Positions 23,509-26,710 of a DNA stretch of 64,000 nucleotides are shown piece after piece. Position numbers and translations under genes: made by a program. The notes beneath the pieces were generated by a model, which was not told where the DNA came from, did no database searches, and saw only the letters and a list, made by a program, of their open reading frames with translations. The number at the start of each line of letters is the position of its first letter. Position 1 is the stretch's first letter. This stretch comes from Chitinispirillaceae bacterium. GTDB lineage: Bacteria > Fibrobacterota > Chitinivibrionia > Chitinivibrionales > Chitinispirillaceae. The stretch spans positions 1 to 64,000 of the forward strand of contig JAFGIN010000120.1 in the NCBI GenBank assembly GCA_016929595.1. The letters are read 5' to 3'.

Positions 23509-23522
23509 ATAGACCAATTAAT

Positions 23523-23596
23523 CGGAGCGTAGCGCAGTCCGGTAGCGTACTTGAATGGGGTTCAAGTGGTCGTAGGTTCAAATCCTATCGCTCCGA
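23523..23596 (+). tRNA. tRNA-Pro (anticodon GGG)
   Basis: A full cloverleaf can be drawn. The acceptor arms CGGAGCG and CGCTCCG pair perfectly. The anticodon stem CTTGA/TCAAG encloses the loop ATGGGGT, giving anticodon GGG. The T-arm GTAGG/CCTAT holds the TTCAAAT loop. The discriminator base is A and no CCA is encoded. Its 3' half reappears in decayed form at 25475-25519, which marks it as the probable attachment site of the AT-rich segment in between. Confidence 0.96.
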
Positions 23597-23604
23597 TAAA
23601 TTCA

Positions 23605-23666
23605 AAACCCTCTGAAATTGCCGAAATTAAGCGAAGTATGGCATTTTCAGGGGGTTTTTTATTTTT
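23605..23666 (+). terminator. intrinsic terminator after tRNA-Pro
   Basis: Inverted arms CCCTCTGAAATTGCC and GGCATTTTCAGGGGG (about 13 of 15 paired) with a 17-base loop, then a T-run at 23655-23660. It sits a few bases after the tRNA, so it ends the tRNA transcript. It also separates it from the convergent toxin operon. Confidence 0.85.
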
Positions 23667-23816
23667 ATTATATAACTTCTTATATTGGTATTTATGATCC
23701 GGAAATTGTTTCATACTATATCAGCAGCATTCAACCGGTAGATCCGGAATTGCGTTGCTGATGAAAAGGCATGTAAAGGGTTGAGAGAAGATTTGAAGGT
23801 GGCTTAATCCAAAACA

Positions 23817-24269
23817 CTATTCAAGAATATCTTCTTGTACTAGTTCAGAATTTTCTTTGAGATCATTCTGATTGGTTTTAAAGACACCATTACTCACCAT
23901 TTTAGAAAATAATTGGTATGGGTCTGTTTTACTCCCATCTTTTCTTAGTGTGTCTTCGTTGTTGAGCCAAAGATAAATGATGCTAAAATCATTTGAAAAA
24001 TACCTAAAAAATAACCTGCGTCTATTACCAAATTTTTCTCTTTTGTATGAAGATAGATTTCCAGATAAATTAAATCGACAATGTGTAGGGTTTGCAGGTA
24101 TTTCAAAAAAAATGATATTTCGAACAGTTTCTAAGAGCTTATATTTTGGATGAGTTTTATAATTAATCGGATCATTTTGTTTTGCACGCAAGACGTCTTT
24201 TTTTAATCGCTCAATTTCCATTTTAAAAAGGCTATGCCAAAATAACTTCCAGCCGTTGCGAATCACCAT
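23817..24269 (-). CDS. YhaV-family toxin (RelE-superfamily ribonuclease)
   Basis: A 150-residue protein that matches the YhaV toxin pattern along its length: NGWKLFWHSLF at the N-terminus, DPINYKTHPKYKLLETV, SYKREKFGNRRRLFFRY (residues 74-90), WLNNEDTLRKDGSKTDPYQ and LFSKM (101-124). In E. coli YhaV is a ribosome-associated RNase neutralised by PrlF. Here no PrlF/AbrB-type gene is adjacent. Instead a TPR protein lies 7 bases upstream in the same operon. The body is basic, with an acidic C-terminal tail. The AT-rich composition and tRNA-flanked location suggest acquisition by transfer. Confidence 0.85.
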   Translation of the reverse strand: MVIRNGWKLFWHSLFKMEIERLKKDVLRAKQNDPINYKTHPKYKLLETVRNIIFFEIPANPTHCRFNLSGNLSSYKREKFGNRRRLFFRYFSNDFSIIYLWLNNEDTLRKDGSKTDPYQLFSKMVSNGVFKTNQNDLKENSELVQEDILE

Positions 24270-24276
24270 TCATACC

Positions 24277-25119
24277 TTATTGAAGTAAAGAGTCAATTTC
24301 CTTAAGATCATCTTCTGTTATTTCTTCGATATTGTATTCATCAAAAAAATCTAAATCATTATCAAAACTATCGTTGTAATTATCTAAAGTAAATCCAATG
24401 TTAATGAAATTTAAAACATGTGATAACCCATTTTCTTCAACAAGTTCAATGAATTTATCTTCGATATCTATCAATAAATTCGTATCAACACGATATGAGT
24501 TCATATTAAAAACGAATTGAATACAATCTTCAAACGTTCGTATATCAATATTTTTCCATATGTTTGGATCAAAATTACCAAATGTATACTCTACGCATTT
24601 GAATAATAATTCACAAGATTCTTGACTTATCCTGTATTTAATCGTGAGATTGCATAAGTTGCTAATTCTTGTGGAACCATCAAATTTTCTATTAGCTAAT
24701 TTATTCCAGGATATAAGAAATTCCTTCGCTTCCTTAAAACTGCCGCAAAACAGTGCATAATCTAAAACATCTTTTAAAAGGCCTAAGTTATTGGATTGTT
24801 TCAAATATGCATCTTTAAGAATTTTAAACGCCTCTTTAAAATGTGCAAAACGAGATAGTGAAACAGCGTAGTTATGAACAGCGATTGAATCAGTTGGTGC
24901 GATTTCTAACGCTATTTTATAACATTCATTCATCTCATCTTCTTTTCCAAGAAGTGTGTTGATAATACCAAGAGCTACGTATGCATTTACCGGATCAATA
25001 CTGATTAATCTCTCTGCTTCATACTTACTTTTATTTAGAGAAAACTCGTCTATTGGAGAATCTGTGTAATTCCGCAATTCTTCAATCAATTGCACTGCTT
25101 TTGGTTTTGGTACTGGCAT
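24277..25119 (-). CDS. TPR protein, candidate antitoxin partner of the YhaV-type toxin
   Basis: A 280-residue protein not recognised as a named family. Residues about 45-112 form two TPR-like helical hairpins (NAYVALGIINTLLGKEDEM ... ALEIAPTD; SIAVHNYAVSLSRFAHFKEAF). The middle is helical, and the last 35 residues are strongly acidic (many Asp and Glu). It is the upstream gene of a two-gene operon whose second member is the YhaV-like toxin. That order and the acid/base complementarity make it the natural antitoxin candidate. This is inference: known YhaV partners are small PrlF proteins. It could also be a chaperone-like third component whose antitoxin was lost. Confidence 0.7.
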   Translation of the reverse strand: MPVPKPKAVQLIEELRNYTDSPIDEFSLNKSKYEAERLISIDPVNAYVALGIINTLLGKEDEMNECYKIALEIAPTDSIAVHNYAVSLSRFAHFKEAFKILKDAYLKQSNNLGLLKDVLDYALFCGSFKEAKEFLISWNKLANRKFDGSTRISNLCNLTIKYRISQESCELLFKCVEYTFGNFDPNIWKNIDIRTFEDCIQFVFNMNSYRVDTNLLIDIEDKFIELVEENGLSHVLNFINIGFTLDNYNDSFDNDLDFFDEYNIEEITEDDLKEIDSLLQ

Positions 25120-25208
25120 GGTTACTCTTTTATTGATATTTTGCTGTGTTTAGTAGAGCAAAAACAGAATCGGAATTTAAAACTGCAAAATAAAATTTTT
25201 TTATTTCT

Positions 25209-25238
25209 ATTATGCTGCACGATTGCAATAATTGCAAT
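25209..25238 (-). promoter_or_regulatory. candidate promoter with twin ATTGCAAT palindromes (toxin-module operator)
   Basis: Two copies of the self-complementary octamer ATTGCAAT (25222-25229 and 25231-25238) are separated by one base. On the minus strand TTGCAA (25237-25232), a 17-base spacer and CATAAT (25214-25209) make a plausible promoter. Both palindromes fall in the -35/spacer region, as expected for an autorepressed toxin-antitoxin operon. The first gene starts about 90 bases downstream. The remainder of 25120-25483 is AT-rich with no gene seen. Confidence 0.4.
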
Positions 25239-25474
25239 ATAAATAATATACATACTGCATGCCAAAATCATTACGGATAGACGACAGAATTTCATGCCGG
25301 ATTTTGTATCATATAACGGGGTTTTCGAGGTATGTGCTGTATTGCAACTGCTGTGTAACTTACATCAAAACCTATTGTTATTCTCCTCCTATTTTTTTTA
25401 TCAGATATTACTTCCGATTTGAATAATGGAGTTTGGAATGGTAGATCTAAAAAGTGTTTTAAGTGTTATCTAAC

Positions 25475-25519
25475 GAATGGGGTTCAAGGTTTCTGTTCCC
25501 AATCCGGTCGCTTCGATAA
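25475..25519 (+). other. decayed tRNA-Pro 3'-half (candidate attachment-site remnant)
   Basis: Positions 25475-25488 (GAATGGGGTTCAAG) are identical to the anticodon-arm region of the tRNA-Pro gene at 23523. The following bases align with its variable loop, T-arm and acceptor 3' strand with several changes and one small insertion (e.g. GTTCCCAATCC versus GTTCAAATCC, then CGCTTCGATAA versus CGCTCCGATAA). No 5' half precedes it. The antisense reading of this remnant supplies the last codons of the adjacent glycosyltransferase. Confidence 0.75.
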
Positions 25520-26710
25520 GGAATATTTGTATACATCAACAATTCGTTGAATCACAACCGCTGGCGCATAACATCGCTTAAACTCTTCCAATGCTTTTTC
25601 ACCCATTGATTGTCGCATGGCGTGATCAGAAAGCATCTTGTGTAATGCTTCCGACAATGCTTCTGTATCATTTTGCCTAACAAGAATTCCCGTGCTGCCA
25701 TTTTTCACGATTTCATTAACCGGTGGAATATCGATTGCGACTACCGGTTTACTATAACTCATTGCCTCTGTATATACGATACCGAAACTTTCATCAGTCG
25801 AAGGGAGTGCGAAAAGTTCACAATGCGACAGAAGATATGCCTTCATTACATCAGAGACTGCTCCTAAGTCAACAATTGATGAATCCTTCTCTGAACACTT
25901 TTCCCCGGGGCCGGCGATGACAAGTTTTGCCGGTGTACTGATCTTTTTGAATGCATCTATTAAAAGGTGGAGACCTTTATGTTTTTCCCGTCTTCCTAAA
26001 AAAAGAATGTACGGATCATCGATAACAGGATGATGTGCGATATTTCTGCGATCTGAAATGACGCTGTTTGCATTAGTAACCGGTGGAATAACATACCAGT
26101 TTTTCTGATTACCACCTGTTCTTGAAGCCATTTCCTGTTTCATCATTGCGGAAAAAAAGATCAGCGCGTTACCATTTACATAAGAGCGTAATTGCCTTGG
26201 TGAATCACCCCATTTATTGAAATGAACAGCGGGGGAGTGAACAATGGGAATAGATACCTTTCTACAGATTTCTCCTGCAAGTCTTGCCAGGTAGCCGGTA
26301 GAAAATGAGTGTACCAGGTCAGTAGCGGTCATGGAACGTTTGACATCAGCATAAAAAGCCCACTTGTAAAAAATGTATAGAATATCGAAAAGCAGGGGAG
26401 TCGGAATGATTTGTTTAATACCCGGGAAATTCCAGAGTAAAAGTGGCAAAAGGTAAATGCGCTTCATAAAAGATGGTTTCAGATAGAAAATTGCATGGCC
26501 TGCGGAATCTTTCTGAGGTTTGGGTGTGGAAGAATTGTAATGCCCGTAGAGTGTTGAAGAATCTGCTCGTGAGCTGTGAGTAAGAACAGAGCTTTGGATC
26601 GCATCAGGCAGATGTGTGATAAGGTTCCGTATGGCGTTTTCAATGCCGCCGATCGAAGGCCAGAAGCGGTCGGCAATTATTAAGAGGTTACGTTGTTTAG
26701 AATTGTTCAT
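25484..26710 (-). CDS. family 4 glycosyltransferase
   Basis: A 408-residue GT-B-fold retaining glycosyltransferase. The N-terminal half starts RNLLIIADRFWPSIGGIENAIRNL. The C-terminal Rossmann domain contains PYILFLGRREKHKGLHLLIDAFKKI and the EX7E motif in DESFGIVYTEAMSYSKPVVA. Substrate is unknown; cell-envelope or exopolysaccharide sugars are likely. No other polysaccharide genes are adjacent. Its final codons (SKRPDWEQKP) are read from the antisense of the tRNA remnant, so the original C-terminus was probably altered by the island insertion. Confidence 0.88.
   Translation of the reverse strand: MNNSKQRNLLIIADRFWPSIGGIENAIRNLITHLPDAIQSSVLTHSSRADSSTLYGHYNSSTPKPQKDSAGHAIFYLKPSFMKRIYLLPLLLWNFPGIKQIIPTPLLFDILYIFYKWAFYADVKRSMTATDLVHSFSTGYLARLAGEICRKVSIPIVHSPAVHFNKWGDSPRQLRSYVNGNALIFFSAMMKQEMASRTGGNQKNWYVIPPVTNANSVISDRRNIAHHPVIDDPYILFLGRREKHKGLHLLIDAFKKISTPAKLVIAGPGEKCSEKDSSIVDLGAVSDVMKAYLLSHCELFALPSTDESFGIVYTEAMSYSKPVVAIDIPPVNEIVKNGSTGILVRQNDTEALSEALHKMLSDHAMRQSMGEKALEEFKRCYAPAVVIQRIVDVYKYSLSKRPDWEQKP

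What the first reader, a model, noticed from the sequence alone, without database searches (positions are those of the whole stretch)
23817..25119. YhaV-type toxin paired with a TPR protein instead of PrlF
Seen: a 150-residue protein with the YhaV pattern (NGW start, RRRLFFRY, a WLNNEDTLR/KTDPYQ block) lies 7 bases after a 280-residue TPR protein with a strongly acidic tail. Known: YhaV is a RelE-superfamily RNase whose described antitoxin is the small AbrB-like PrlF. Inference: the TPR protein is a new type of antitoxin or a chaperone-like controller, making this an undescribed toxin-antitoxin variety.
Basis: partly seen in the sequence, partly recalled or inferred. Interest (0 to 1): 0.78.

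Follow-up and report, generated by a model that had tools for sequence, protein, structure and literature searches.

The report
YhaV toxin paired with TPR protein
A small DNA insertion beside a proline tRNA gene carries an intact bacterial RNA-cutting toxin of the YhaV family whose usual antitoxin is missing and whose place is taken by an acidic helical-repeat protein; it looks like a toxin-antitoxin pair with a new type of antitoxin, but it was seen only once and its function is untested.

Summary
ORF 23817-24269(-) is a genuine YhaV (Pfam PF11663, E 2.2e-36; AlphaFold model pLDDT 94, RelE/ParE fold) that keeps all invariant family residues, including the conserved arginines and lysine. It starts 7 bases after a 280-residue, acidic (pI 4.5) TPR/alpha-helical protein that fills the antitoxin position. 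No PrlF (PF15937) or AbrB/MazE domain (PF04014) was found in the 6.6 Mb genome (95% complete). Among the other YhaV ORFs examined (about 170, some redundant; five phyla plus plasmids and phages), nearly all, and every intact one apart from one beside a decayed PrlF, have a PrlF-type neighbour. New here: the pair is the only cargo of a 1.9 kb, AT-rich (31% against 43% G+C) islet between tRNA-Pro(GGG) and a displaced copy of that tRNA's 3' half. Relatives carry equally small islets at tRNA-Pro, one of them a complete hicAB module. Best reading: a horizontally acquired YhaV toxin-antitoxin module whose antitoxin has been replaced by an acidic TPR protein. That the TPR protein binds and neutralises the toxin is inferred, not shown.

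The parts
23522..23597 (+). tRNA-Pro (anticodon GGG), intact; the integration target
   Evidence: ARAGORN
23598..25474 (.). AT-rich islet, 1877 bp, between the tRNA and its displaced 3' copy; the only long ORFs are YhaV and TPR
   Evidence: GC 0.31 against 0.43 outside
23817..24269 (-). YhaV-family RNase toxin, 150 aa
   Evidence: PF11663 2.2e-36; all invariant residues kept; AF2 pLDDT 93.9 with RelE-fold matches in PDB
24270..24276 (-). 7-base intergenic gap (GGTATGA); TAAGG, made of the TPR stop codon plus GG, is a possible ribosome-binding site for yhaV, suggesting translational coupling
   Evidence: sequence
24277..25119 (-). Acidic TPR / alpha-solenoid protein, 280 aa, with acidic tail (residues about 245-280); candidate antitoxin
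25222..25238 (.). Perfect 8-1-8 palindrome ATTGCAATAATTGCAAT overlapping promoter-like hexamers (25265..25236 and 25237..25209, - strand) upstream of the TPR gene; possible operator, weak
   Evidence: promoter-like matches are no more frequent than in shuffles
25475..25521 (+). Displaced 3' half of tRNA-Pro (att-like remnant); first 14 nt identical (GAATGGGGTTCAAG, anticodon loop to 3' anticodon stem), 35 of 47 aligned columns identical, ends at the same GATAA
   Evidence: the 14-mer occurs exactly twice in the 6.6 Mb genome

Best explanation
A horizontally acquired, stand-alone two-gene toxin-antitoxin module inserted at tRNA-Pro. The downstream gene encodes a YhaV with all conserved residues intact, a RelE-superfamily mRNase. 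The upstream gene encodes an acidic TPR protein that has taken the place of PrlF. Most likely the TPR solenoid and its acidic tail bind the basic YhaV and block its RNA- or ribosome-binding face. Loss or titration of the TPR protein would free YhaV, cut mRNA and stop growth, which stabilises the islet and/or serves defence. Shown: toxin identity and intact invariant residues, operon-like layout, islet boundaries, absence of PrlF. Inferred: binding, neutralisation, trigger.
For: YhaV identity, intact conserved residues and RelE fold. Antitoxin-first order with a 7-bp gap and a possible ribosome-binding site made from the TPR stop codon; YhaV modules are listed as A/T order in PMC11980606. No PrlF or AbrB-domain protein in the genome, with the PF04014 controls ringing in 9 of 14. 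Charge complementarity: YhaV pI 9.6, TPR 4.5, tail 4.05; the eight reference PrlFs have pI 4.3-5.2. Both genes share the same foreign composition and are the only cargo of a tRNA-bounded islet. A relative's islet at tRNA-Pro carries a complete hicAB module.
Against: The pairing was seen once. No homologue of the TPR protein outside generic TPR similarity. No DNA-binding domain was recognised in the TPR protein, although type II antitoxins usually autoregulate. The TPR model beyond residue about 125 is low confidence (single sequence). No complex model. The YhaV sits on the longest end branch of its tree (2.08; median 0.3), so relaxed selection or loss of toxicity is possible despite the conserved residues.
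Confidence: 0.5

Rival explanations
1. Regulated effector module: the TPR protein is mainly a sensor or controller (protein- or peptide-binding solenoid) that holds YhaV inactive until it meets a trigger such as a phage protein, so the pair is an abortive-infection system rather than an addiction module.
For: TPR solenoids are typical protein-recognition scaffolds; a 280-aa solenoid is large for a mere antitoxin (the PrlFs here are about 105-120 aa). Neighbouring relatives' tRNA-Pro islets carry other single conflict-type genes: AAA-ATPase_like/PDDEXK_9, SLFN_AlbA_2, hicAB.
Against: No PADLOC match worth the name (CARF_RelE 0.011); no phage or defence-island context; no evidence of a trigger.
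Confidence: 0.2
2. The TPR gene is an unrelated passenger. YhaV lost its PrlF when the islet was trimmed and is now silent, weakly toxic or decaying.
For: Single occurrence; long YhaV branch; a decayed PrlF next to an intact YhaV is seen elsewhere (L133); TPR genes are common.
Against: YhaV keeps every invariant residue and an open frame; the TPR gene has the same composition as YhaV, sits in the antitoxin slot with a 7-bp gap and is the only other islet gene.
Confidence: 0.2
3. The TPR protein is a TAC-type chaperone that needs a third, small antitoxin not recognised here.
For: Toxin-antitoxin-chaperone systems exist (SecB-like chaperones; PMC5105189, PMC6377645).
Against: No further ORF of credible size in the islet; known TAC chaperones are SecB-like, not TPR.
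Confidence: 0.07

Closest known systems
prlF-yhaV type II toxin-antitoxin module (E. coli K-12; PF15937 + PF11663)
   Same: Homologous YhaV toxin (38% identity to an E. coli YhaV), toxin gene second, short spacing, acidic partner
   Different: Partner is a 280-aa TPR protein with no AbrB fold and no PrlF similarity; no PrlF anywhere in the genome
Short-loop cyanobacterial YhaV subtype (L005, L008, L013, L175, L176, L178, L179)
   Same: Shares the short loop before YKREKF and groups nearest in the tree (93/80 support, long branch)
   Different: These have small PrlF-like antitoxins, recognised by HMM or by eye as AbrB-like
hicAB islet at tRNA-Pro(GGG) in a same-family genome (L228, G011)
   Same: TA module as the only recognisable cargo of a sub-2-kb islet between tRNA-Pro and its displaced 3' end
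   Different: Ordinary HicA/HicB proteins
Toxin-antitoxin-chaperone (TAC) systems
   Same: A larger helper protein is thought to control an RNase toxin
   Different: TAC has three genes and a SecB-like chaperone; here two genes and a TPR protein

Membership tests
YhaV toxin family (PF11663) | Match to the family profile over its length | tested here: met
   2.2e-36, profile 1-136 of 138
YhaV toxin family (PF11663) | Conserved basic/active-region residues (R77, K79, R85, R89, R109, D116, Y118, window numbering) | tested here: met
   All present; which ones are catalytic was not mapped, since the primary paper is not held
YhaV toxin family (PF11663) | RelE-superfamily (BECR) fold | tested here: met
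   AF2 pLDDT 93.9; Foldseek PDB hits are RelE/ParE toxins (RelBE2 4.7e-4, TMt 0.79)
YhaV toxin family (PF11663) | mRNA cleavage / growth inhibition | not testable with these tools
   needs expression assay
prlF-yhaV module | PrlF (AbrB-type) antitoxin gene adjacent upstream | tested here: not met
   TPR ORF in that place; no PF15937 or PF04014 in the genome; PrlF HMM on the TPR protein E 0.66
type II toxin-antitoxin module | Two-gene operon of toxin and protein partner | tested here: met
   7-bp gap, same strand, isolated islet
type II toxin-antitoxin module | Partner protein neutralises toxin by binding | not testable with these tools
type II toxin-antitoxin module | Autoregulation by a DNA-binding antitoxin | tested here: inconclusive
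   No DNA-binding domain found in the TPR protein; one palindrome overlaps the putative promoter
TPR protein superfamily | Tandem 34-residue helical hairpins | tested here: met
   Sub-threshold Pfam TPR, PDB designed TPR 3.7e-8, helical hairpin model; only the N-terminal ~110-140 residues are convincing

The most novel reading that the evidence does not exclude
A TPR solenoid with an acidic tail is a new class of antitoxin and sensor for a RelE-superfamily RNase: it replaces PrlF, neutralises YhaV directly and releases it on recognising a trigger protein, and it travels as single-module cargo in tRNA-Pro islets.
Probability: 0.2. Interest if true: 0.72.

Novelty: new variant of a known kind. 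Interest (0 to 1): 0.46.

Why it matters
YhaV has so far been tied to PrlF. A YhaV kept intact beside a TPR protein would show that its antitoxin can be exchanged for a repeat-scaffold protein of quite another fold. This is directly testable with a two-plasmid rescue assay. The tRNA-Pro islets also give a place to look for further compact toxin-antitoxin or defence-like modules in this phylum.

Tried and rejected
Hidden PrlF in the islet or genome: none. Recurrence of the pair: YhaV searches in 168 genomes of the own phylum (only this one), 388 of the phylum of G168 (a verrucomicrobial genome; 1 hit), 386 of the phylum of G171 (Nostoc; 52 with hits), 297 of the phylum of G169 (an acidobacterial genome; 2) and 350 of the phylum of G173 (name not told; 6), plus 80 genome-contig, 40 viral and 11 plasmid loci: no TPR-YhaV pair. 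One YhaV fragment (L190) follows a TPR-containing ORF, but that ORF is a surface-lipoprotein-assembly outer-membrane protein (SlipAM 1.2e-23) and the toxin is a 101-aa fragment: rejected as coincidence. Foldseek with the TPR model gave only generic TPR proteins. I considered reading seven substitutions at near-invariant YhaV positions (S69, S73, Y75, N104, V125, F130, K131) as loss of a PrlF contact surface. Most are shared with the short-loop subtype, which does have PrlF-like partners; by eye only K131 is unusual against the aligned sequences. Rejected as evidence. Empty-site comparison: the flanking genes SbcD and the glycosyltransferase were not found at the tRNA-Pro loci fetched from relatives, so the uninterrupted site was not seen. 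One search gave no hits at all, even for repeats already seen, so its alignment settings are taken as faulty; one search replaces it.

Full report
OBSERVATION. Two ORFs lie on the minus strand, 280 aa at 24277-25119 and 150 aa at 23817-24269, separated by 7 bases. The second matches Toxin_YhaV (PF11663) at 2.2e-36 over nearly the whole profile. In an alignment of 47 YhaVs it keeps all invariant residues (L22, P61, R77, K79, L86, F87, W101, R109, D116, Y118, F121) and the near-invariant R85 and R89. Its AlphaFold model is confident (mean pLDDT 93.9) and its best PDB matches are RelE/ParE-type toxins. A review (PMC5408214) states that highly conserved arginines of YhaV are needed for activity; the primary paper was not available, so I could not map which ones. 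The first ORF has weak Pfam TPR matches, clear similarity to designed TPR chains (3.7e-8) and a helical-hairpin model that is confident over about residues 1-110 only (single sequence). The tail from about residue 245 is strongly acidic (14 D/E, 1 K/R; pI 4.05), against YhaV pI 9.6.

NO PrlF. The genome (6.6 Mb, 95% complete) has no match to PrlF_antitoxin PF15937 and none to MazE/AbrB PF04014, a search whose controls rang in 9 of 14 named genomes. A PrlF HMM made from 139 sequences gives the TPR protein E 0.66, the same as unrelated genes.

HOW UNUSUAL. I fetched 11 plasmid loci, 40 viral-contig loci and the 80 best genome-contig loci encoding YhaV. 128 of 132 YhaV ORFs have a PrlF next to them. 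The four others are the window, two fragmentary or frameshifted matches (L050, L052) and L133, an intact YhaV beside a decayed PrlF reading frame. Searches of 386 genomes of the phylum of a Nostoc, 388 and 297 of the phyla of a verrucomicrobial and an acidobacterial genome and 350 of a further unnamed phylum added loci that again have PrlF, or AbrB-like PrlF relatives, apart from a few YhaV fragments or divergent ORFs. The loci partly overlap between searches, so 'about 170' other ORFs is a rounded count with some redundancy. In the window's own phylum YhaV was found only in this genome (1 of 168). The TPR protein has no dedicated homologue in any collection tried; its phylum-wide matches are generic TPR proteins at E 4.5e-5 or worse. 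In a 94-row tree the window's YhaV has the longest end branch (2.08, median 0.3) and groups, with modest support (93/80), with a short-loop cyanobacterial subtype that has PrlF-like partners. Partner replacement from a PrlF-type ancestor is therefore the simplest reading, but the long branch makes the placement unsure.

WHERE IT SITS. The pair lies in an AT-rich segment (31% G+C against 43%) directly after tRNA-Pro(GGG), the only tRNA gene in the window. At 25475-25521 lies a displaced copy of the 3' half of that tRNA: the first 14 bases, from the anticodon loop onward, are identical and occur exactly twice in the genome. The whole alignment scores 44 against a maximum of 28 in 500 shuffles. 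This is the usual signature of integration into a tRNA gene, with the crossover in the anticodon region and the displaced 3' end left at the far side (general knowledge of tRNA-targeting integrases). No integrase is present; the whole islet is 1.9 kb. In 45 tRNA-Pro loci scanned (the window's included), other genomes show the same layout: G015, islets of 2.2 kb with a 48/48 repeat and one AAA-ATPase_like/PDDEXK_9 gene (two near-identical contigs, possibly one locus); G002, 2.2 kb with a SLFN_AlbA_2-HTH gene; G011, about 1 kb with a complete hicA-hicB module, where the repeat is shorter (24 nt of the tRNA 3' end, 23 identical). In G013 an integrase gene lies beside a tRNA-Pro 3' remnant. tRNA-Pro is thus a site of tiny cargo islets in this group, and at least one of the others is a plain toxin-antitoxin module. 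This supports reading TPR-YhaV as a self-contained module of the same sort. The uninterrupted site with the same flanking genes was not found.

MECHANISM. Most likely (0.5): the TPR protein is the antitoxin. Shown: toxin identity and conserved residues, gene order, islet boundaries, no PrlF. Supported but indirect: opposite charges, same foreign composition, possible translational coupling (TAAGG made from the TPR stop codon), a palindrome overlapping the putative promoter (about one such palindrome in ten regions of this size and composition would be expected by chance, by my rough estimate). Inferred: binding of the basic YhaV surface by the TPR groove and acidic tail, release on loss of the TPR protein, mRNA cleavage.

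VERDICT. Real, not an artefact of gene calling; a member of the YhaV toxin family but not of the prlF-yhaV module as defined, because its PrlF criterion was tested and not met. New variant of a known kind, seen once.

Noticed in passing
L213/L214 (G015 C154, C94), L215 (G002 C10), L228 (G011 C84): tRNA-Pro genes in genomes related to the window's carry 1-2.3 kb islets with single cargo modules (AAA-ATPase_like/PDDEXK_9; SLFN_AlbA_2-HTH; hicAB) bounded by duplicated tRNA 3' ends and without integrase: an apparent hotspot for minimal islets.
   Followed up: partly
L218 1882-3021 and 3108-3148 (G013 C11): Phage_integrase-family ORF (PF00589 2.7e-10) lies next to a tRNA-Pro 3' remnant; a candidate source of the recombinase for these islets.
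   Followed up: no
L224, L233, L255: Short (120-135 bp) repeats of the tRNA-Pro 3' end just downstream of the intact tRNA gene, without room for cargo; possible empty or collapsed att sites.
   Followed up: no
window 25484-25521: The end of the glycosyltransferase ORF (25484-26710, - strand) overlaps the displaced tRNA remnant, so its last residues may have been set by the insertion.
   Followed up: no
window 25222-25238: Perfect palindrome ATTGCAATAATTGCAAT, once in the window, overlapping promoter-like hexamers upstream of the TPR gene.
   Followed up: partly
L190 318-2026: A 101-aa YhaV fragment directly after a SlipAM/TPR outer-membrane protein gene; judged coincidental.
   Followed up: yes
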